The notes under the pieces: model-generated | Database searches by the model: none | What the model saw: the letters and a program-made list of their open reading frames with translations, nothing else | What the model was told of the DNA's origin: nothing | In this document: one piece after another, positions 8,673 to 45,392 of the stretch | How positions within the stretch are numbered: the first letter of the stretch is position 1 | How the letters are laid out: each line of letters starts with the position of its first letter | Position numbers and translations under genes: made by a program | From: a virus | Direction: 5' to 3' (one strand) | IMG/VR virus record: IMGVR_UViG_3300036768_000657 | Span: 1-45,392 of that record | Length of the DNA stretch: 45,392 nt

Positions 8673-10130
8673 ATGCCTGTCAATACCGGCGTCCTGACTT
8701 CGCTGCGCCGCCCGCAGACCTTCCACACCTTCTCGTATCTGCAGGGCGGCCGCGCGCTCGTGCCGCTGCCGCAGCGCCTGCTGCTGATCGGCACGATGAA
8801 GGGCGGCACCGCCGTCGCGGGCACGATCTACCAGATCAACGACGCGCAGGAGACGGACGCGCTCTTCGGCGTGGGCACGCCGCTCGCGCTCATGTGCCGC
8901 ATGGCGTTCGCGACGGGCGCGCTGCTCGGCCAGGGGCCGCAGCTCTACGCGTGCGGCGTCGCCGAGCCTGGCTCGGGCGCAGCGCACACGCAGACGTTCA
9001 CCGTCACCGGCACGGCAACCGCAAGCGGTAACGTCGTGATCCGCATTGCGGGCCGCACGCTGACCATCGGTGTCGCCGTGGGCGACGTGCAGAACACGAT
9101 CGCGTCCGCGATCAACGCAGCGATCGGCGCGCAGAAGATCAACCTGCCCGTCACTTCGAGCGTCGCGGCGAACGTCGTCACGGCGACGCACACGGTGAAG
9201 GGTATCGGCGGCCAGGACGTGATCTACGAGGTCGTCTCGACGCCCGCCGGTGTCACGGTCACCACTGCGCAGGGCGTCGCGGGCTCGGGCGTCGCGGATG
9301 AGACTGCGGCGCTCGCGAACGCCTCGGGCCCGGACTACGACGCGATCGCGCTCGAGAACCACGCGGCCGCCGACATTGCGCTCGCGCTGTCGCACGTCAC
9401 GACGGCCTGGTCGTCGAGCGAGAAGAAGTGGCGCTGGATCTTCATCGGCGAGCCGGGGACCATCGGCGCCGCGACGACGCTCGCGAGCGCCGCGAACGAC
9501 CGCGCGATCGTCGTCGTCTGCTGCGAGCAGTGCCCGAACCTGCCCGGCGAGATCGCCACGGCGGCGGCCTTCGGCATGCTGTCGCGCTCGCGTCCGAACG
9601 GCAACTGGGACGGCATGCGCCTCCCGTTGTTCCCGCCATACGACGCGTACGACTTCACGAACAGCGAGGTCGAGACCGCGCTCGCGGCCGGCGTCACGCC
9701 CCTGAAGCCCGTCGTGGACCCGCAGACGCGCGTCCAGACGCCCGGCGTCGTGAAGATCGAGAAGCTCGTCACGACGTCCACGACGCAGAGCGGCCAGCCC
9801 TTCGAGGCGCTGCGCGACATCGCGGTACCGCGGACGGGCGCCTACATCGCGCGTCAGATCGACGCGGCGTTCGCGGCCCGCTTCGGCGCAGCGGCCAACC
9901 CCGACGGGGTGCTGCTCACCGACGACACGGTCCAGCAGGTTCGCGACATGGTCGCCAACATCCTCTACGCGGCGCAGGACAACAAGATCCTGACGAACGT
10001 CGACTCGGATCTGAAGCTGCTCGTCGTCGAAAAGGACTCGAGCGCGCCCGGTCGCATCAATGTCGACGTGACCTACACCGTCGTGCTCGGCCTGCACCAG
10101 GTCGCCTTCGTCCACCGCGTCACGATCTGA
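8673..10130 (+). CDS. Contractile tail sheath protein (Mu gpL type)
   Basis: At 485 residues it is close to Mu gpL. It opens with a short extended N-terminus, then a beta-rich insertion domain (about 110-200, Thr/Val/Ala-rich), and ends in the conserved sheath C-terminal domain with DDTVQQVRDMVANILYAAQDNKIL and a final VTYTVVLGLHQVAFVHRV strand. The C-terminal arm links subunits for contraction, as known for the family. GGAG lies upstream of ATG 8673. Its presence, with the tube gene next, establishes a myovirus morphology. Confidence 0.92.
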   Translation: MPVNTGVLTSLRRPQTFHTFSYLQGGRALVPLPQRLLLIGTMKGGTAVAGTIYQINDAQETDALFGVGTPLALMCRMAFATGALLGQGPQLYACGVAEPGSGAAHTQTFTVTGTATASGNVVIRIAGRTLTIGVAVGDVQNTIASAINAAIGAQKINLPVTSSVAANVVTATHTVKGIGGQDVIYEVVSTPAGVTVTTAQGVAGSGVADETAALANASGPDYDAIALENHAAADIALALSHVTTAWSSSEKKWRWIFIGEPGTIGAATTLASAANDRAIVVVCCEQCPNLPGEIATAAAFGMLSRSRPNGNWDGMRLPLFPPYDAYDFTNSEVETALAAGVTPLKPVVDPQTRVQTPGVVKIEKLVTTSTTQSGQPFEALRDIAVPRTGAYIARQIDAAFAARFGAAANPDGVLLTDDTVQQVRDMVANILYAAQDNKILTNVDSDLKLLVVEKDSSAPGRINVDVTYTVVLGLHQVAFVHRVTI

Positions 10131-15567: not shown

Positions 15568-16872
15568 ATGCTGCTGCTCACGTCTACGTCCGACAAGCTC
15601 CAGGTGATCACATCGTCGACGGCCGCGCTCGACGTCAACGCGAGCTGGATCGACGCTCCGAATCCGATCGTTGCGGCGTCGACGTACACACCGGGCCGCA
15701 ATAACACGAAGATCACCACGGCGACGACGACCGACGTCGTTCCGGCGCCGGGCGCGAGCACCGCGCGCAACGTCAAGGCGCTGAGCGTCCGCAACGTCGA
15801 TCCGGCGAACGCAAACAACATTTCGATCGTGCACACAGATGGCACGACGACCGTCGTCAAGTGGACCGGCACATTGCAGCCAGGCGATGTCGTCGAGCTC
15901 GACGAGTTCGGCAGCTTCGGCGCGACATCGCCCGTGCCACGCGACGTGCAGACATTTGCCACGCCCGGCTCATTCACATGGACGAAGCCGACCAACTTCC
16001 CCGCAAAGTTCGTCGTCGTCGAATGCATCGGCGGTGGTGGTGGTGGTGGTGGCGGCGGCGTAGCGACAGGCGCCGTGGCTCGCAAAGGCGGCGGGGGCGG
16101 CGGGGGCGGCGGGTTCATTCGCAGGCAGTTCCTCGCAAGCGACCTCAATTCGACCGAGCCTGTCGTCGTCGGCGCGGGCGGCGTGGGCGGCGCGGGCTCG
16201 GTCGGAGCCGGCTCCGGCGCAAACGGAGGCATCGGTGGAGCTTCCTCGTTCGGCGCGACGCCCTATGTGCAGGCCGGCGGCGGTGGTGGCGGCGCGGGCG
16301 GCGCTAACTCGGGCGTGGTCACCGGCGGCGGCGGGGGTGGCGGGTGGGCCTCTGGTGGCACCGGATCGACGGCCGGCGGCACATCGGGCGGTCCGGGCAC
16401 GGCAGGGGCCAGCATCGCCGGGCAGACCGGATCGACCGGGTCGACGCCGGTCGTCGCCGAGGCCGGCGGCGGCGGAGGCGGAGGATCGACGGCCGCTGCC
16501 GCCACGGCGGCTGGCGGCGCGTCGCTTTTTGGCGGCGGCGGCGGTGGCGCGGGTGGCGGCGCGACATCGACTCCCACGGCGACGAACGGCAGCGCGGGCG
16601 GCGGCACGCTAACGATGGCATCCGGAACCGGTGGTGCGCTGGGAGCCGTGGGCAATCCCGGCGGCAACGGTCAGAACGGGAACTCGATCGCGGCAGGCGC
16701 AGGAGGAGGAGGAGGAGGAGGGACGATCACCGCGAACCAGAGCGGCTTCGCCGGCGGCAACGGCGGCAGCCCCGGCGGCGGTGGTGGTGGCGGCGGCGTC
16801 GGCGAGGGCAGCGGCACGGGTGGCAAGGGCGGCAACGGCGGCAACGGGATCGTGCGCGTCTACACGTACTGA
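15568..16872 (+). CDS. Glycine-rich tail/baseplate-associated protein
   Basis: This 434-residue protein has an N-terminal beta-rich domain of about 150 residues (LQVITSSTAALDVNASW; LQPGDVVELDEF). A typical Gly-rich-domain entry follows (TFATPGSFTWTKPTNFP, then VVVECIGGGGGG). The remaining 275 residues are mostly Gly, Ala, Ser and Asn with long G runs. Such domains occur in phage tail fibres and receptor-binding tips. The gene is inserted between the gp45 and gp46-type baseplate genes, a place where Mu has nothing comparable. ATG 15568 follows a GGGCGAGG ribosome site. It is probably a host-contacting tip or adhesin, which is inference. Confidence 0.62.
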   Translation: MLLLTSTSDKLQVITSSTAALDVNASWIDAPNPIVAASTYTPGRNNTKITTATTTDVVPAPGASTARNVKALSVRNVDPANANNISIVHTDGTTTVVKWTGTLQPGDVVELDEFGSFGATSPVPRDVQTFATPGSFTWTKPTNFPAKFVVVECIGGGGGGGGGGVATGAVARKGGGGGGGGGFIRRQFLASDLNSTEPVVVGAGGVGGAGSVGAGSGANGGIGGASSFGATPYVQAGGGGGGAGGANSGVVTGGGGGGGWASGGTGSTAGGTSGGPGTAGASIAGQTGSTGSTPVVAEAGGGGGGGSTAAAATAAGGASLFGGGGGGAGGGATSTPTATNGSAGGGTLTMASGTGGALGAVGNPGGNGQNGNSIAAGAGGGGGGGTITANQSGFAGGNGGSPGGGGGGGGVGEGSGTGGKGGNGGNGIVRVYTY

Positions 16873-32220: not shown

Positions 32221-33018
32221 CTACGCCTTCGCTTTCTCGGTGAGCGCGATGGCCTCCTCGAACGCGGCAATCGCGCGAGCTACCGTGTCCCGGCGAAGCT
32301 TCCGCCAGGCAGCGTCGTCGGCGGCGTCGAAGAGGGCAGCGGCACGGGTGGCAAGGGCGGCGTCGTCGGCGGCGGTGGTGGCGTCGCCGGCGGCGACGGC
32401 GGCGGCGCCGGCGGCGCCGGCGGCAGCCCCTGCGGTGGTGACGGCGGCGATGGCGGCGGCGGCGGCGGCGGCGCGGGCGGCGCCGGCGACGGCGGCGGCG
32501 ATGGCGGCGGCGGCGATGGCGGCGTAGGCGTCGGCGCGGGCGTCGTCGGCGCGGGCGTCGTCGGGCAGATCTTTGAGGATGTCAGCGCGCACCTCGCGCG
32601 CTAGATCGCGCGCTCGGTCCGCGCTGTTCCCGTCGACCATGGGCGGCAGCGCCTCGAACCGCTCTGCGAGATCCGGGCGCGGCTTGTTGGGCAGATCGCG
32701 GAGGAACGCGGGCATGTTCACGCGCATGTGGCGATCGACGAGCAGGTACGCGCGCCGCTGCATCAGAGCGTATGAGCCGACCGTACCGACGAGCCGCGGA
32801 ATCAGCGGCTTCAGGAGCTGCCGGTCGTCGTCGCGGAGGTGGTCGTTCAGCGCGCGTCCGTACGCCGCGAGCGCCGGATCGACACACTTCGGATGGTCGC
32901 TGTGCTTCTCGCCGGCGAACCACGCGACGGCCTCCATGAGGCAAACGCCTTGCTCGCGCTTGGAATGCGAACCGCGAGCAAGCCTGATGTTGTCGAGGTT
33001 GATGTCGATGTTTTTCAT
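32221..33018 (-). CDS. Conserved phage protein with Ala-rich C-terminal region
   Basis: This 265-residue protein has an N-terminal conserved part (CLMEAVAWFAGEKHSDHPKC, LKPLIPRLVGTVGSYALMQR, YLLVDRHMRVNMPAFLRDL) that I recognise as a family of unknown function in phages of high-GC bacteria. From about 155 to 245 it is almost all Ala with Asp, Thr and Gly (AYAAIAAAAIAAAVAGAARA and more), coded by repetitive GCN codons. The tail ends in a basic-acidic helix. ATG 33018 overlaps the previous stop as ATGA. The opposite strand of the repeat gives a false Gly-rich ORF. Confidence 0.7.
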   Translation of the reverse strand: MKNIDINLDNIRLARGSHSKREQGVCLMEAVAWFAGEKHSDHPKCVDPALAAYGRALNDHLRDDDRQLLKPLIPRLVGTVGSYALMQRRAYLLVDRHMRVNMPAFLRDLPNKPRPDLAERFEALPPMVDGNSADRARDLAREVRADILKDLPDDARADDARADAYAAIAAAAIAAAVAGAARAAAAAAAIAAVTTAGAAAGAAGAAAVAAGDATTAADDAALATRAAALFDAADDAAWRKLRRDTVARAIAAFEEAIALTEKAKA

Positions 33019-35287: not shown

Positions 35288-35304
35288 TGTGCACACAATG
35301 CACA
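35288..35304. promoter_or_regulatory. Operator-like site 1 (TGTGCA-N5-TGCACA)
   Basis: TGTGCACACAATGCACA is a 17-bp site with perfect TGTGCA/TGCACA arms. It lies in the 166-base gap between the leftward operon and the 68-residue gene. On the minus strand a weak TTGATT (35323-35318) and CATTGT (35300-35295) pair with a 17-bp spacer overlaps it. Repressor binding would block leftward transcription. Confidence 0.65.
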
Positions 35305-35996: not shown

Positions 35997-36031
35997 GGCC
36001 AGCGAAGTTAGCTGCACAGACCCCGGGATAG

Positions 36032-36048
36032 TGTGCACATACTTGACG
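36032..36048. promoter_or_regulatory. Operator-like half-site 3
   Basis: TGTGCACA at 36032-36039 begins a 17-bp block that directly abuts site 4, so the TGTGCAC arms repeat exactly 17 bp apart. Its right arm (ACTTGACG) is not symmetrical. It may be a lower-affinity site; the TTGACG within it is the -35 of the rightward promoter. Confidence 0.5.
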
Positions 36049-36071
36049 TGTGCACTGAGTACACAGTACAC
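36043..36071 (+). promoter_or_regulatory. Rightward promoter for the Cro-like gene
   Basis: TTGACG (36043-36048) and GTACAC (36066-36071) are separated by 17 bases, and those 17 bases are exactly operator site 4. The -35 matches five of six positions, the -10 three of six. A start of transcription about seven bases after the -10 would be at 36078-36080, coinciding with the GTG of the next gene, so the mRNA may be leaderless. Repressor bound in the spacer would block RNA polymerase. Confidence 0.55.
36049..36065. promoter_or_regulatory. Operator-like site 4 (TGTGCACT-G-AGTACACA)
   Basis: TGTGCACTGAGTACACA is a 17-bp near-palindrome (one mismatch in symmetry) fitting the TGTGNACT-N-AGTNCACA consensus. 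It fills the spacer of the rightward promoter and lies between the divergent repressor and Cro-like genes. Confidence 0.7.
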
Positions 36072-36079
36072 GGAAACGC

Positions 36080-36307
36080 GTGCGCCTTGTGGAGCAAATT
36101 CGAGCCGAGCAACAGCGCCAGGAGCTGTCCGTTCAGCAACTGCTCGATAAGAGCAAGCTTCCTATCGACCGCTCAACGCTCCATCGGAAGCTGAAGGGCG
36201 ACGTGCCGACGACGGACGCCGAGTGCGAAGCGCTCGCGAGGGCGCTGCGCGAGAAGGCGCCCGGCTTCGTCCTCGTCTGGCCGAAGCGATCCCGGGGCCG
36301 CCGATGA
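36080..36307 (+). CDS. Cro-like DNA-binding protein
   Basis: This 75-residue protein reads as a small HTH protein: VEQIRAEQQRQELSVQQLLD, then KLPIDRSTLHRKLKGDVPTT and a closing helix. The SVQQLLDKSKLPIDRSTLHRK stretch is the helix-turn-helix. Being divergent from the repressor and small, it is the Cro counterpart that would favour lytic growth. GTG 36080 lies at the predicted transcription start. An in-frame GTG at 36089 is an alternative. The C-terminus is basic (KRSRGRR). Confidence 0.65.
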   Translation: MRLVEQIRAEQQRQELSVQQLLDKSKLPIDRSTLHRKLKGDVPTTDAECEALARALREKAPGFVLVWPKRSRGRR

Positions 36308-36533: not shown

Positions 36534-36623
36534 CGCTGTTGGAGGTGTGGCGCCGAGCTGACGGCTTTCGACTCTGGCCTCGCATGCGGAGGCCGGTCGT
36601 TCGTCGGGCCTCGCCTTGCCCGC

Positions 36624-36662
36624 GCCGATCGGCTGCAGGTTCGACTCCTGCCGGGGCCACCA
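36624..36662 (+). other. tRNA 3'-end-like sequence (possible attP)
   Basis: GCAGG-TTCGACT-CCTGC forms a perfect T-arm at 36635-36651, followed by CGGGGCC, the discriminator A and CCA ending at 36662. The minus-strand translation of this stretch, WWPRQESNLQP, is the peptide often seen where tRNA 3' ends are wrongly translated. A convincing 5' half is missing: GGCCTCG at 36576 could pair with the acceptor strand but D and anticodon arms do not fold normally. Phages integrating at tRNA genes carry such 3' ends as attP. It lies 8.6 kb from integrase, which is unusual. Confidence 0.6.
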
Positions 36663-37348: not shown

Positions 37349-38974
37349 ATGGGATCTTCGGTGTCGACGAACGGCGCGGGATTGCGTCGTGCGAGGGGCA
37401 ACTCTTCGCGTGAGCTGCCGCATGACCTCGCATGCGAGCAGTCGATCCTCGGCGGCGTCATCCTGCGCAACGAGGTCCTCGGCGAGCTCACCGATCTCGA
37501 GACCGACGACTTCTACGAATTCAAGCACCGGGTGATCTGGGAGGCGATCCGCAACCTCCAGGCCCAAGGCAAGCCGATCGACGTCGTTACGATCGAGTCC
37601 GAGCTCCTGAAGATCGGCAAAGGCGACGCAGTCACCATTGCCTACCTGGGCGATCTGCTCCTGCGCGTGCCGACCGTCGACAACGTGCTCGCGTACGCCG
37701 ACACGGTAGCGACGCTGTCGAGAAACCGCCGCGCGCTGCTGCTGCTCGACTCCGTTCGCGAGCAAGCGTGGAATTGGCCGCACGACCCCGGCGAGATGAT
37801 CGCGGAGATCGCCGGCGAGCTCGGCCGGCTTGAGCACGAGGGCCGCGCGATCGCCGAGAGACATCGCGCGCGCTGGGTCGTCGACTTCGACAAGTTCCTC
37901 GGCGACGACGAGCCCGACGACGATGACGCGCAGGACTGGGTGATCCGCGACCTCGTGCCGCGCGGTGAGGCCGCGCTGTGGGGAGGTCCGATGAAGGGCG
38001 GCAAGACGTGGTCGGCGCTCGACCTGATGCTATCCGTCGCGCTCGGCGAGGACTGGCTCGGCACGTTCAAGAACACGCTGGGCAGGCCGGCACCCGTCGT
38101 CGGTCTCCTGCTCGAGGACAACGTCCGGCGCCTGCGGAAGCGCATCTGGGAGCTCACCCGCGCGCGCGGCATCACGCCGAACGACGACCGCCTGCGCGCG
38201 AACATGCACATCTCGCGTTCGCTGCTGCGGCTGCCCGACGCCGGCGACCAGAGGCGCCTCATCGCCGAACTGAAGGAGCGCAAGCCAGCGCTCGTCGTGA
38301 TCGACAACCTGACACGCGTGCTCGTCGGCGATCCGAACAGCACGCGCGACGCCGCGGCGTTCTCGCGGGCATGGACGGAGATATGCGAGGAGACCGGCGC
38401 CTGCGTGATGTTCTTGCACCACACGAAGAAGCAATTGGGCGACCCCAAGACGCAGCTCGATCCGTTTGAGCAGCTCCGCGGATCGAGCGACTTCGGCGCG
38501 GCCGCGCGAAACGTCATCGTCACGACGCCGATCCGCAACGAGCACGAGCACCTCTCGGAGATCCGCATGCGCGGCAACCTCGATCTCCGACGAGACAGCT
38601 TCGTGCTCGGGTTCGAGCGCAAGCAGCAGTTCGACCGCTGGCAGGCGCGCCTGAGCTATCGCGGCGAGGTCGCCGACGTGAAGGACGAGGCCGCGAAGCA
38701 GCAGAAGGAGCTCAAGGCTGAGCGGAAAAGGGTCGAGCAGCAGCGCGAGGCTAAGGAGCGCGAGAACCGCGCGATCGCGATCGCTCGAAACGAGGGCAGC
38801 GTCTCGTCGTCACGGCTCGCTCGCGAGCTCGGCCTCAAGCAGCCGCAGGGCACGCCGGCCGCAACGCTCCGCGAGCTGCACCGGAAGGGCATTCTGCGCA
38901 CCGATCGCATCCTCGGATACGTGCTCGCCGATGATCACATTCAGGGTGATCTCCCTGTCGAAGGGGGGAGGTGA
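37349..38974 (+). CDS. DnaB-N domain fused to RepA-type AAA ATPase
   Basis: This 541-residue protein has a DnaB N-terminal-like domain (CEQSILGGVILRNEVLGEL, IWEAIRNLQAQGKPIDVVTI) followed by a RepA/KaiC-like ATPase. Walker A (GGPMKGGKTWS) is about 211-221. Walker B (ALVVIDNLTRV) is about 313-323. LHHTKKQLGDPK follows as a motif-3-type segment. The end is a coiled coil and a winged helix (VSSSRLARELGLKQPQGTPA). It is likely the replicative helicase or helicase loader. The fusion of DnaB-N to a RepA-type motor is not the usual replicase arrangement. Confidence 0.78.
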   Translation: MGSSVSTNGAGLRRARGNSSRELPHDLACEQSILGGVILRNEVLGELTDLETDDFYEFKHRVIWEAIRNLQAQGKPIDVVTIESELLKIGKGDAVTIAYLGDLLLRVPTVDNVLAYADTVATLSRNRRALLLLDSVREQAWNWPHDPGEMIAEIAGELGRLEHEGRAIAERHRARWVVDFDKFLGDDEPDDDDAQDWVIRDLVPRGEAALWGGPMKGGKTWSALDLMLSVALGEDWLGTFKNTLGRPAPVVGLLLEDNVRRLRKRIWELTRARGITPNDDRLRANMHISRSLLRLPDAGDQRRLIAELKERKPALVVIDNLTRVLVGDPNSTRDAAAFSRAWTEICEETGACVMFLHHTKKQLGDPKTQLDPFEQLRGSSDFGAAARNVIVTTPIRNEHEHLSEIRMRGNLDLRRDSFVLGFERKQQFDRWQARLSYRGEVADVKDEAAKQQKELKAERKRVEQQREAKERENRAIAIARNEGSVSSSRLARELGLKQPQGTPAATLRELHRKGILRTDRILGYVLADDHIQGDLPVEGGR

Positions 38975-38979
38975 TCTCC

Positions 38980-40878
38980 ATGGCCGGCCGTCTTCAGAAC
39001 CCCGCTCAGGCCGATCTTTTCGCCTGGTCTAACCCCCCTCAATCGACCCCCCTCAATCGACCCCATGAATCACCGTTCGAGTCGATTGAGGACCCCTGTC
39101 GCACCCCCCCCCTCTCATCCCCCCCATACCCCCCCAGGTGTAGGAGTGAGGGGGTGGGAGGGGGCTCAACCGTTGGGTCCTCAACGGCTGGGTCTCGCGG
39201 CCTGGGAGACCTCGCTGGGAGCTCGGGGCCGCGGACCGCCGTTGAGGACCAGGGGGCGACACCTGGCGGAAATCTCCGCGCGGGTGATCCCCCCCCCCTG
39301 CGCCCGTACCAGCAGCAGGCGATCTCGGCTGTCGAGGCAGAGTGGGCACGTGGCAATCGCCGCACTCTGCTCGAGCTTCCGACCGGTACAGGCAAGACCG
39401 TCTGCTTCGCCGAGATCTCTCGGCGCGTCGTCGCGACTGGCAAGCGTGCTTTCGTCGTCGCTCACCGCAGCGAGCTGCTCAAGCAGGCGCGCAACAAGCT
39501 CGCCGACCTCGGCCTTCGCGCCGCGATCGAGCAGGCCGACCAGCGCGCCGGGCAAGCGCCCGTCGTCGTCGGCTCCGTGCAGAGCCTTCGTGGTGCTCGC
39601 CTCGCTGGCTTTGACCCTCGCGAGTTCGGCGTGCTCGTCATCGACGAGGGTCACCACGCCGTCTCGCCCGGCTACCGCGCGATCCTCGAGCACTTCGCTG
39701 GCGTTCCGACGCTGTTCGTCACCGCGACACCCGATCGCCTCGACGGCGTCGGGATGCGCGCCGTCTGTGACTCCGTCGCGTTCCGCTACTCGATGCGCGC
39801 CGCAATCGCCGACGAGTGGCTCGTGCCCGTGCTCGCTAAGCGCGTCACCGTCGGCGAGATCGACCTCAGCAGCGTGCGCGTTCACCACGGTGATCTCGAC
39901 CAGCGCGAGCTCGCCGCGGTCATGTCGCGCGAGAAGGCGCTGCACGCGACCGTCCGCCCGCTGCTCGAGCTCTCTCGCGGCCGCCGCACGATCGCGTTCG
40001 CCGTCGACGTTGCGCATGCGCACTCACTCGCCGAAATCGCGAATCGCTACGAGCCCGGCGTCGCGTGCGCCATCGACGGCAGCGCCGATGAGGACGAGCG
40101 CGAAGCCTGTCTAGCGGCGTTCCGGCGCGGCGACTTCCGCGTCCTGTTCAACTGCGCGCTGTTCACCGAGGGCTTCGACGATCCGGGGATCGCGTGCGTC
40201 GGCCTGCTCCGTCCGACGCAGTCGCGTGCGCTCAACACGCAGATGATCGGGCGCGGCACGCGCATCCTCGGCGCGAGCTACGCCGAGAGCGTCGCCAACG
40301 GCAAGCGCGATGTCCTCGTGCTCGATTTCGTCGGCAACGCGGGCAAGCACAAGCTCGTCGGGCCGGCCGATGCACTCGCAGGCCTCGACCTGCCCGAGGA
40401 TGTTCGCGCCGACGTCGAGAAGGCGCTCGACGAGGGGCAACTCGACCTCGAGGACGTGCTCGCGCACGCCGAGGAGCAGGCGAACGCTCGCCGCGAGCGC
40501 GTGAAGCTGATCGCGATGGCGCATTACCGCGCCGAGAACGTCGATCCGTTCTTTGGTCAGCTGCCGCCCAATCCGCAGGGCGCATGGACACAAGAGCCGG
40601 CGACGCCGATGCAGCTGCGCGCGCTCGCACAGGCGGGCTTCTCGAAGCTGCCGATGGAGCTCACCCGCGGTGAGGCCTCGCGCTACATCGAGGCGCTGCA
40701 GGACCGCCGCAGGCGCGGCCTCGCGAGCCTGAAGCAAGCGCGCCGCCTGCATGCGCTCGGCCTCGACGTGCGGAACATGACCGCCGTCCGCGCCGGGCAG
40801 CTGTTCGCGAAGCTGACGAAGCGCGGCTGGGGGCCGTGGACCGTCCGCGACGAGCCCGAATACCGGAGGGGCAAATGA
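38980..40878 (+). CDS. DEAD/DEAH-box helicase with origin-like N-terminal region
   Basis: The 632-residue protein has SF2 helicase motifs: LRPYQQQAI (Q-motif), PTGTGKT about 134-140, VIDEGHHA about 219-226, VTATPDRLDG and MIGRGTR about 421-427. About 25-105 is Pro/Ser/Gly-rich without predicted fold, coded by DNA full of repeats and C-runs (39031-39298). It could unwind the phage origin or aid replication restart. ATG 38980 has GGGGGGAGG nine bases before it; GTG 38971 overlaps the previous stop but has no usable spacing. The C-terminal 120 residues hold WTQEPATPMQLRALAQAGF. Confidence 0.85.
   Translation: MAGRLQNPAQADLFAWSNPPQSTPLNRPHESPFESIEDPCRTPPLSSPPYPPRCRSEGVGGGSTVGSSTAGSRGLGDLAGSSGPRTAVEDQGATPGGNLRAGDPPPLRPYQQQAISAVEAEWARGNRRTLLELPTGTGKTVCFAEISRRVVATGKRAFVVAHRSELLKQARNKLADLGLRAAIEQADQRAGQAPVVVGSVQSLRGARLAGFDPREFGVLVIDEGHHAVSPGYRAILEHFAGVPTLFVTATPDRLDGVGMRAVCDSVAFRYSMRAAIADEWLVPVLAKRVTVGEIDLSSVRVHHGDLDQRELAAVMSREKALHATVRPLLELSRGRRTIAFAVDVAHAHSLAEIANRYEPGVACAIDGSADEDEREACLAAFRRGDFRVLFNCALFTEGFDDPGIACVGLLRPTQSRALNTQMIGRGTRILGASYAESVANGKRDVLVLDFVGNAGKHKLVGPADALAGLDLPEDVRADVEKALDEGQLDLEDVLAHAEEQANARRERVKLIAMAHYRAENVDPFFGQLPPNPQGAWTQEPATPMQLRALAQAGFSKLPMELTRGEASRYIEALQDRRRRGLASLKQARRLHALGLDVRNMTAVRAGQLFAKLTKRGWGPWTVRDEPEYRRGK
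39033..39091. repeat. CCTCAATCGA iteron-like repeats
   Basis: Two perfect tandem 14-mers CCCCCCTCAATCGA lie at 39033-39046 and 39047-39060. A third CCCC start follows at once and an inverted TCGATTGAGG at 39082-39091. They are inside the helicase gene's non-conserved region. Tandem plus inverted elements of this size resemble replication-origin iterons embedded in a replication gene, as in lambda O. Confidence 0.5.
39150..39177 (+). other. G-quadruplex-forming run
   Basis: Four G-runs (GGGGG, GGG, GGGGG, GGG) occur within 28 bases on the plus strand, with loops of 1, 1 and 10 bases. They sit between the two sets of repeats. Such a sequence can fold as a G-quadruplex on a displaced strand near an origin. 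It is a composition observation; folding is not shown. Confidence 0.45.
39176..39250. repeat. 13-bp inverted repeat flanking a GC-rich loop
   Basis: GGTCCTCAACGGC at 39176-39188 is the exact inverse of GCCGTTGAGGACC at 39238-39250, separated by 49 bases. The arms contain CCTCAA, the same core as the upstream iteron-like repeats. In single-stranded form it would make a long cruciform or hairpin, which fits an origin or a replication-pausing element. Confidence 0.5.
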
Positions 40879-41897: not shown

Positions 41898-42545
41898 ATG
41901 GAAACGACCACGAACGAGAACACCCAGACCGACGGCACCGACGACGCGGCGCTCATGAGCGGCGACGGCATCAAGCGCAGCGTTCCCAAGCGCGGCGGGG
42001 ATGAGCTTCCCGAGCACAAGGTGATCGCGCAGGGCATCAAGCGCGAGCTGCCCTGCAGGCTAACGAACGACGAGCTGCTCGAGATCGCATTGAGCAAGGC
42101 GCGCCTCGAGGACGAGCGCGACCAGTTGCAGGACCAGTTCGCCGACGTGAAGCGCGAGTGGGGCGAACGGATCGCCGCAATCGAAAAGCACATCAACGCG
42201 ATGGGCCTCGAGCTGCGCACGCGCGAGCGCCGCCAGGTCGTGCTCTGTCACGAGCGTGTCGTCGCTGCGACCCGGATGGTCGAGCTCGTGCGCGAAGATA
42301 CGAACGAGATCGTCGAGCGCCGCGCCGCCAACCTGTTCGAGGTCGGCAAGATCCTGCCGCTGGCGAAGCGCAATGTGACCGACGCGATCGCCGAGGACCC
42401 GCCCGAAGTCGACGAGGCGCTGAAGGCCGCTGCCGAGGAGACCATGAGGGCCGCTGCCGCCGCGAACGTCGAGGAGACCGACGACGGCGACGTGACCGTG
42501 CCCGATACCGCGGCGCCGAAGAAGAAGCGGGGCCGGAAGTCGTGA
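41898..42545 (+). CDS. Coiled-coil protein of the replication operon
   Basis: This 215-residue protein has a low-complexity N-terminus, a long charged coiled coil (about 60-115: SKARLEDERDQLQDQFADVK), a compact middle and an acidic-then-basic end (VEETDDGDVTVPDTAAPKKK). Its function is unknown. ATG 41898 follows the previous stop by two bases. A structural or recruiting role in DNA metabolism is only suggested by the location. Confidence 0.55.
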   Translation: METTTNENTQTDGTDDAALMSGDGIKRSVPKRGGDELPEHKVIAQGIKRELPCRLTNDELLEIALSKARLEDERDQLQDQFADVKREWGERIAAIEKHINAMGLELRTRERRQVVLCHERVVAATRMVELVREDTNEIVERRAANLFEVGKILPLAKRNVTDAIAEDPPEVDEALKAAAEETMRAAAAANVEETDDGDVTVPDTAAPKKKRGRKS

Positions 42546-44093: not shown

Positions 44094-44602
44094 TCAGCGT
44101 CGAGGTACATGGCGAGCCAGCGCCGAAGGGCTCGATGCGCGCGATGCTCGTGCGCGGCCGTCCCGTGGTGATCGCGAGCGGCTCTGCCGCCAACAAGCGC
44201 GCGCTCGCCGCGTGGACGAAAGCGATCCGCGAGCGCGTCGGTGCAGCGCTCGGTGATCCCGCCTCGCCGCTGCATGTCGAGCGGCCGCTCGAGCTCGGCT
44301 TGCTGTTCAAGCTCGTTCGACCGAAGAGCCACTGGGGAACGGGGCGCAACAGCAACAAGCTCAAGCCAGCGGCACCGCTGCATCCGATGGTGAAGCCCGA
44401 CATCGACAAGCTCGCACGCTCTACCCTCGACGCACTCACGGGCCTGCTCTACGACGACGATGCACGCATCGCCGTGCTCACCATGGTGAAGCAGTGGGTT
44501 GAGCAGGAGTCCCAGCAGGGGGTGGTGATCACCTGTCGCCCGCTGCCCACCAGCATGCAGGGCAGCCTCGACCAGGGGACCACAGTGGTTTCAAACCGTT
44601 AG
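44090..44602 (+). CDS. rusA: RusA-like Holliday junction resolvase
   Basis: The 170-residue enzyme has the RusA signature: EVHGEPAPKGSMRAM at the start, KPDIDKLARSTLDALTGLLY about 102-121 with the catalytic Asp residues (104, 106, 114), DDDARIAVL about 122-130, and a following Lys134. It resolves branched DNA produced by replication or recombination before packaging. GTG 44090 overlaps the previous stop. Its last codons lie in the repeat that recurs at 45083-45123. Confidence 0.87.
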   Translation: MISVEVHGEPAPKGSMRAMLVRGRPVVIASGSAANKRALAAWTKAIRERVGAALGDPASPLHVERPLELGLLFKLVRPKSHWGTGRNSNKLKPAAPLHPMVKPDIDKLARSTLDALTGLLYDDDARIAVLTMVKQWVEQESQQGVVITCRPLPTSMQGSLDQGTTVVSNR

Positions 44603-44627
44603 CCGATCGAAAAGGACGGCCCGGCGC
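44586..44627 (+). repeat. Direct repeat, copy 1 (RusA end)
   Basis: From TGGTTTCAAA through GTTAGCCGATCGAAAAGGACGG to CCGGCGC, 42 bases recur at 45083-45123 with a few changes and one base fewer. The stop codon TAG of RusA and of the 56-residue gene lie at the same place in each copy. The two repeats bracket a short cassette with an excisionase-like gene. Confidence 0.75.
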
Positions 44628-44932: not shown

Positions 44933-45099
44933 AAGACGCCCAGGACGCAGCCGGCGCGCTCGTGGAGCTCGTCCGCCGCGTGGTGCGCGACGTGGTGCGC
45001 GAGGAGCTCGTGCGCGAGCGCCCGGCCATGCTGGCGACCCGGCTCGTCTCGATCGCGGACCATACGGCCGGGGACCCCCCAATGGTTTCAAAATGTTAG
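44929..45099 (+). CDS. Unknown 56-residue protein before terS
   Basis: This helical charged peptide (ALVELVRRVVRDVVREELVR) is coupled to the HTH_17 gene by ATGA overlap. Its last codons form copy 2 of the repeat shared with rusA. It ends 118 bases before terS on the circle. A role in packaging or in late control is possible from location only. Confidence 0.45.
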   Translation: MKDAQDAAGALVELVRRVVRDVVREELVRERPAMLATRLVSIADHTAGDPPMVSKC

Positions 45100-45123
45100 C
45101 CGATCGAAAGGACAGCCCGGCGC
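45083..45123 (+). repeat. Direct repeat, copy 2
   Basis: This 41-base copy matches 44586-44627 apart from a few substitutions and one fewer A (GAAAGG versus GAAAAGG). It overlaps the end of the small ORF and lies upstream of terS on the circular map, in the usual pac neighbourhood. Confidence 0.75.
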
Positions 45124-45138
45124 AACCCCAAGGGAAAA

Positions 45139-45392
45139 AATCGTTCCCCAGAAATTCGACCCCCCCCGGCCGGCAGCCCTCTGCCGACGGTGATTCTTAG
45201 CCCTTAGCGTCGATGGAGTGGCGAAGCAGTCCCTGCGTCAGCGGCTCGGTGACCCGCCGATCGATGACTCGCTCGCTGCGATCAGCTGGATGCAGCGCGC
45301 GCTCGCCGCGATGGCTGCCGACGTTCTCTCGAGCAACCTCACCGAGCACGAGAAGCGCGAGGAAATGCTCAAGCTCGCCGACCGCATGGCGA
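45139..45392. repeat. Terminal direct repeat, right copy
   Basis: This is the same 254 bases as 1-254 except T at 45265 in place of C at 127. The sequence before it ends in AGGGAAAA. The repeat closes the circle and marks the genome as complete. Confidence 0.97.
45218..45392 (+). CDS. Small terminase, partial second copy (window end)
   Basis: GTG at 45218 begins the same frame as the complete gene at 80-427 and is cut by the window end after 58 codons. It is the redundant copy created by linearising the circular genome and not a second gene. The single difference is synonymous (Asp16). Confidence 0.9.
   Translation, partial: MAKQSLRQRLGDPPIDDSLAAISWMQRALAAMAADVLSSNLTEHEKREEMLKLADRMA

What the first reader, a model, noticed from the sequence alone, without database searches (positions are those of the whole stretch)
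39031..39298. Origin-like array inside the helicase gene
CCTCAA-type elements occur at least six times in both orientations (two tandem 14-mers, an inverted copy, GCTCAACCG, and a perfect 13-bp inverted repeat), together with a G-quadruplex-type run. The protein segment coded there is unstructured, as expected when DNA function dominates. Lambda places its origin inside gene O in the same way.
Basis: partly seen in the sequence, partly recalled or inferred. Interest (0 to 1): 0.7.

Follow-up and report, generated by a model that had tools for sequence, protein, structure and literature searches.

The report
Repeat array before phage helicase domain
A phage helicase gene carries, just before its conserved part, a 270-base stretch of repeated and self-complementary DNA that does not look like protein-coding sequence and could be a replication origin or a structured RNA, but nothing here shows which.

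Summary
The repeats are real and far beyond chance: six CTCAA(C/T)(C/G)G elements, in both orientations, lie within about 210 bp, against two in the other 45 kb. They form two strong hairpins, and six C-tracts of 6-10 bases lie among them. The segment (39031-39298) has no codon-position signature (GC at the three positions 0.69/0.71/0.69); none of 2359 same-sized windows from supported genes looks like that. The six copies encode six different peptides in shifting phases, so similarity is at DNA/RNA level. The gene is an SF2 (ResIII) helicase, not an initiator. Its domain starts at 39298; the ~100 residues before it are predicted disordered and absent from every relative examined. The 'origin' reading is only partly supported: the detrended GC-skew minimum is at 42.0 kb and weak, there is no AT-rich tract, no recognised initiator, and no relative sharing the element, so conservation could not be tested. 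Best reading: a DNA-level cis element, candidate origin, in a dispensable linker (0.4). Rivals: RNA leader structure, slippage-prone neutral linker, or intergenic DNA misread because of the C10 tract. Side finding: many related viral contigs carry a covarying pseudoknot, absent from Rfam, directly upstream of the same helicase.

The parts
37349..38974 (+). DnaB-type replicative helicase gene (DnaB N domain + AAA_25), directly upstream, stop overlaps the next start
   Evidence: Pfam DnaB 1.4e-22, AAA_25 5e-35; phrog_19 DnaB-like helicase
38980..40878 (+). SF2 (ResIII/DEAD) helicase ORF, likely start ATG 38980 behind the strong Shine-Dalgarno GGGAGGTGATC; conserved domain from about 39298 (LRPYQQQ)
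   Evidence: Pfam ResIII 1.6e-29, domain from residue 107-110 of the GTG 38971 reading; sequence
38980..39027 (+). N-terminal peptide MAGRLQNPAQADLFAW with QADLF, a match to the beta-clamp binding motif QL(S/D)LF
   Evidence: only such match among the supported window proteins scanned; consensus and QADMF of Pol III alpha in PMC11139829
39031..39298 (.). repeat array; no codon-position signature; encodes a P/G/S-rich disordered linker if translated
   Evidence: GC per codon position 0.685/0.708/0.685 versus GC3 0.90 +/- 0.04 in supported genes, GC3<=GC2 in 0 of 2359 windows; pLDDT about 30
39032..39059 (+). two tandem 14-mers ACCCCCCTCAATCG (elements 1 and 2; a third partial copy to 39064)
39081..39091 (-). 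element 3, inverted copy GTCGATTGAGG; pairs with element 2 (39051-39061) as an 11-bp stem
39104..39135 (-). C9/C7/C7 tracts = canonical G-quadruplex-type run on the minus strand; also pairs partly with the G-run 39148-39164
   Evidence: G4Hunter -2.68, highest in genome; inverted pairs I1/I2
39163..39173 (+). element 4, GGCTCAACCGT
39175..39250 (.). 75-bp imperfect palindrome whose base is the perfect 13-bp inverted repeat (elements 5 and 6: GGTCCTCAACGGC / GCCGTTGAGGACC)
39289..39298 (+). C10 tract immediately before the helicase domain; GTG 39284 lies one frame off and would be in frame with one more C
   Evidence: arithmetic on coordinates

Best explanation
The segment is a cis-acting DNA element of the phage, most likely the array to which a replication initiator or regulator binds (a candidate origin), lying between the DnaB-type helicase gene and the SF2 helicase domain. 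If translated, it serves only as a flexible tether between an N-terminal clamp-binding-like peptide (QADLF) and the helicase domain, so its sequence is free to be set by DNA function. SHOWN: the repeat cluster, the predicted hairpins, the loss of codon signature, the differing peptides per copy, and the position in the replication module. INFERRED: that a protein binds the CTCAAYSG elements, that the hairpins or minus-strand G-quadruplex help strand opening, and that replication starts here.
For: Six elements in both orientations, in two groups each with a tandem pair (14- and 15-bp spacing) and an inverted copy downstream. No codon-position bias in the segment although both flanks have the normal one. 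The copies fall in codon phases 0, 2, 2, 0, 1, 0 and encode PQST, PLNRP, ESIED, GSTV, GSSTA, AVEDQ. Position directly after a DnaB-family gene and in front of a second helicase domain. The window holds the most exact inverted 10-mers and the most C/G-run bases of any 268-bp window in the genome. Origins inside a coding gene with a tolerant middle are known in lambdoid phages, where extra iterons simply add residues to O (PMC7466680).
Against: Skew minimum elsewhere and weak. No AT-rich unwinding tract. The gene is an SF2 helicase, and no initiator was recognised among the replication-module proteins I scanned. No relative shares the element, so conservation is untested. Long hairpins suit RNA or single-stranded DNA as well as a duplex binding array.
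Confidence: 0.4

Rival explanations
1. A structured RNA leader: the transcript folds into successive hairpins before the helicase domain and controls its translation or the stability of the DnaB-helicase message.
For: RNA fold z -4.9; related helicase genes in many viral contigs are directly preceded by an RNA-like covarying pseudoknot, so a structured element in this position has a parallel.
Against: No evident sequence similarity to that pseudoknot; no Rfam match above chance; the structure lies behind a strong ribosome site and start (ATG 38980), inside the apparent reading frame; no terminator-like hairpin.
Confidence: 0.2
2. A neutral, slippage-prone linker: the disordered tether is under little selection, and C-tract slippage, tandem duplication and template-switched palindromes built the repeats; they bind nothing.
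For: Six C-tracts of 6-10, a perfect tandem 14-mer, P/G/S-rich disordered product, no relative with the extension.
Against: The element core is kept in separated, inverted copies with different flanks and not only in tandem; the other P/G/S-rich windows tested, only three and from one gene, keep GC3 above 0.92, so disorder alone does not seem to erase codon bias here.
Confidence: 0.23
3. The segment is an ordinary intergenic region. The helicase really starts at GTG 39284 (reading M-I-P-P-P-L-R-P-Y-Q, as short as in relatives), and the long frame is an accident of the C10 tract, through an assembly error or phase-variable slippage.
For: GTG 39284 is exactly one frame off the domain across C10; relatives start 2-40 residues before LRPYQ; base composition at all three codon positions is close to intergenic GC; the other C-runs of 8 in the genome lie in intergenic blocks.
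Against: No good ribosome site before 39284; ATG 38980 has a near-perfect one, and its first residues hold a plausible clamp motif.
Confidence: 0.12
4. An inserted mobile palindromic element (REP/MITE-like, or like palindromic elements that insert in frame in genes).
For: Sharp change of character against the flanks; absent from all relatives examined.
Against: Single copy in the genome; no copy found in phage or plasmid collections or in viral contigs by exact paired patterns; no target-site duplication recognised.
Confidence: 0.05

Closest known systems
Lambdoid phage origin (ori-lambda inside gene O)
   Same: Repeated short elements inside the reading frame of a replication gene, in a segment where the protein tolerates change (PMC7466680).
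   Different: Here the gene is an SF2 helicase, not the initiator O; elements lie in both orientations in two groups; no AT-rich tract; binding not shown.
Iteron or palindrome origins linked to repA in plasmids and extrachromosomal prophages
   Same: Direct and inverted short repeats next to replication genes (PMC7157519).
   Different: No RepA-like protein was found by the family searches made; the neighbour is a DnaB-type helicase.
Beta-clamp binding motif proteins (for example Hda with the motif in a disordered N-terminus)
   Same: QADLF at residues 10-14 in a disordered N-terminus.
   Different: Motif match only; binding untested and the segment is absent from relatives.

Membership tests
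Lambdoid origin | repeated elements (iterons) inside a replication gene | tested here: met
   six elements in the helicase ORF
Lambdoid origin | the gene encodes the initiator that binds them | tested here: not met
   product is a ResIII/SF2 helicase with a predicted disordered N-terminus
Lambdoid origin | adjacent AT-rich unwinding tract | tested here: not met
   best 60 bp nearby is 45% AT; richer places elsewhere, up to 57% at 35297
Phage replication origin in general | GC-skew turn at the site (common, not universal) | tested here: not met
   detrended minimum 41,993, weak profile
Phage replication origin in general | replication starts there | not testable with these tools
   needs read depth or a replication assay
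Phage replication origin in general | elements conserved while the protein changes | tested here: inconclusive
   no relative covering this segment was found
Known structured RNA (Rfam) | match to a covariance model | tested here: not met
   no match at gathering score; only chance-level hits
Beta-clamp binding protein | QL(S/D)LF-type motif in an accessible segment | tested here: met
   QADLF, residues 10-14, predicted disordered
Beta-clamp binding protein | measured binding to the clamp | not testable with these tools
   needs a binding assay

The most novel reading that the evidence does not exclude
A replication origin of a new layout, GC-rich, without an AT tract and built of inverted CTCAAYSG groups and hairpins, embedded in the flexible tether of a clamp-linked SF2 helicase, so that the same stretch is both origin DNA and protein linker.
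Probability: 0.15. Interest if true: 0.65.

Novelty: new variant of a known kind. Interest (0 to 1): 0.4.

Why it matters
If the segment is the origin, it would be a case of origin DNA doubling as a protein linker outside the lambdoid initiator gene, in a GC-rich phage without an AT-rich unwinding tract, and it would name a 270-bp fragment to test. If it is not, it is still a useful example of an open frame in GC-rich DNA that composition shows to be behaving like non-coding sequence.

Tried and rejected
Close relatives of the helicase (best 41%), of the DnaB gene, of RusA, and in genomes: none covers the array. The best structural relatives (portal 68%, sheath 70-75%) are fragments; the longest one (G001, 36,437 bp) is alignable with the window only up to about 35.3 kb and has no match to either helicase. 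DNA searches for the array in phages and plasmids gave only chance hits, and exact paired patterns in viral contigs none. Transcription terminator or sigma-70 promoter: none. Group I intron, riboswitch and other Rfam families: none. Repeated GGTGATC around the gene was considered as an operator, but it occurs more than 50 times across the genome, mostly inside genes, so it was dropped. Low-GC3 windows in two other ORFs first looked like counter-examples, but I judged these to be overextended or wrong-frame ORF starts and trimmed or left them out.

Full report
What the window is. It is an IMG/VR virus record with a 254-bp direct terminal repeat, 1-254 = 45139-45392, so the unit is 45,138 bp and probably complete. 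GC is about 68%. Structural genes include a large terminase, a portal and a Mu-like tail sheath. The replication module lies at 36.6-44.6 kb: a DnaB-type helicase (37349-38974), an SF2/ResIII helicase (38971/38980-40878), a weak match to a Dam-type methyltransferase, and a RusA resolvase. The finding concerns the SF2 helicase.

Against the rest of the genome, CCTCAA/TTGAGG is enriched about 60-fold (5 found, 0.08 expected), and CTCAA[CT][CG]G occurs six times here and twice elsewhere (the second motif was defined after looking, so its P value overstates the case). The elements form two groups: 39037+, 39051+, 39081-91 inverted; and 39165+, 39180+, 39238-50 inverted. The region folds far better than shuffles as RNA (z -4.9) and as minus-strand DNA (z -5.4); 39176-39250 is a 75-bp imperfect palindrome. 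The quadruplex-type run is real but is strongest on the minus strand, where it is the top G4Hunter score of the genome.

DNA or RNA constraint, not protein. In supported genes of this phage GC3 averages 0.90 (sd 0.04) and exceeds GC2 in all 2359 windows of 89 codons. In 39031-39297 the three positions are 0.685/0.708/0.685, close to the intergenic 0.675. The six copies lie in different codon phases and encode different peptides. An open frame of this length means little in such DNA; all six frames are full of long ORFs. The model predicts residues 1-102 disordered (pLDDT about 30) and the helicase fold from about residue 103; the low confidence is partly because no relative covers that part. 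Relatives begin 2-40 residues before LRPYQ and none has the extension.

Where translation starts. ATG 38980 follows GGGAGGTGATC, an excellent Shine-Dalgarno sequence, and its product begins MAGRLQNPAQADLFAW. QADLF fits the beta-clamp motif QL(S/D)LF (Pol III alpha has QADMF, and Hda carries its motif in a disordered N-terminus; PMC11139829) and is the only such match in the supported proteins scanned. This favours translation through the array, with the array as tether. But GTG 39284 sits one frame off the domain across the C10 tract, and one extra C would give M-I-P-P-P-L-R-P-Y-Q, the short form seen in relatives. An assembly or slippage effect at C10 therefore remains possible, and it would turn the array into plain intergenic DNA.

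Is it an origin? For: repeat layout, position between two replication helicases, non-coding character. Against: the detrended GC-skew minimum is at 41,993, the raw one at 10,123, and the whole profile only just exceeds block shuffles (0.046); no AT-rich tract; the gene is not an initiator; no conservation test was possible. Two of those defining features were tested and not met, so it should not be filed as a lambda-type origin, though it may still work like one.

Side finding. In 65 of the 82 related helicase loci examined, G- and C-tracts occur in the stretch just before the helicase start. Closer reading shows an 80-90 nt element CTAGCGGCA..CCTGCTAGA-[stem]-GGGGGG-[stem']-GCCGC..CCCCCC..CTAGC that reads as an H-type pseudoknot. 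The stem changes in step (CCACGG/CCGTGG, CCTCTG/CAGAGG, CCAAGG/CCTTGG, CTCGC/GCGAG, ACTCTG/CAGAGT), and one G-tract change is matched (GGGGGAG/CTCCCCC). Among 170 copies in fetched loci (25 unique; some contigs were fetched twice), 143 are followed within 115 nt by M(x)LRPYQ. Rfam has no match, and the phage collection had no match to the one copy searched. It shows no evident similarity to the window's array, but it shows that a structured element directly before this helicase is common, which raises the RNA rival somewhat.

Verdict. Observation confirmed; origin plausible (0.4 for a DNA-level cis element that is a candidate origin) but unproven. Interest is moderate, because the evidence stops at sequence and no relative covering the array is available.

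Noticed in passing
   Followed up: partly
1-254 and 45139-45392: 254-bp exact direct terminal repeat, so the record is probably a complete 45,138-bp unit.
   Followed up: no
44590-44627 and 45087-45123: Near-identical direct repeat of about 37 bp (TTCAAA..GTTAGCCGATCGAAA.GGAC.GCCCGGCGC) flanking a small gene that reads like an excisionase-type HTH protein, next to the genome end; possible packaging or alternative origin site.
   Followed up: no
36020-36080: Repeated GTGTGCAC / GTACACAGTACAC palindromes in an apparent intergenic stretch; looks like a repressor operator region.
   Followed up: no
36576-36662: ARAGORN tRNA-like hit with a four-base anticodon (cgcc), identity unassigned.
   Followed up: no
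16000-16850 and 32300-32560: Long Gly-rich GGC-type repeat stretches, one in each of two modules.
   Followed up: no
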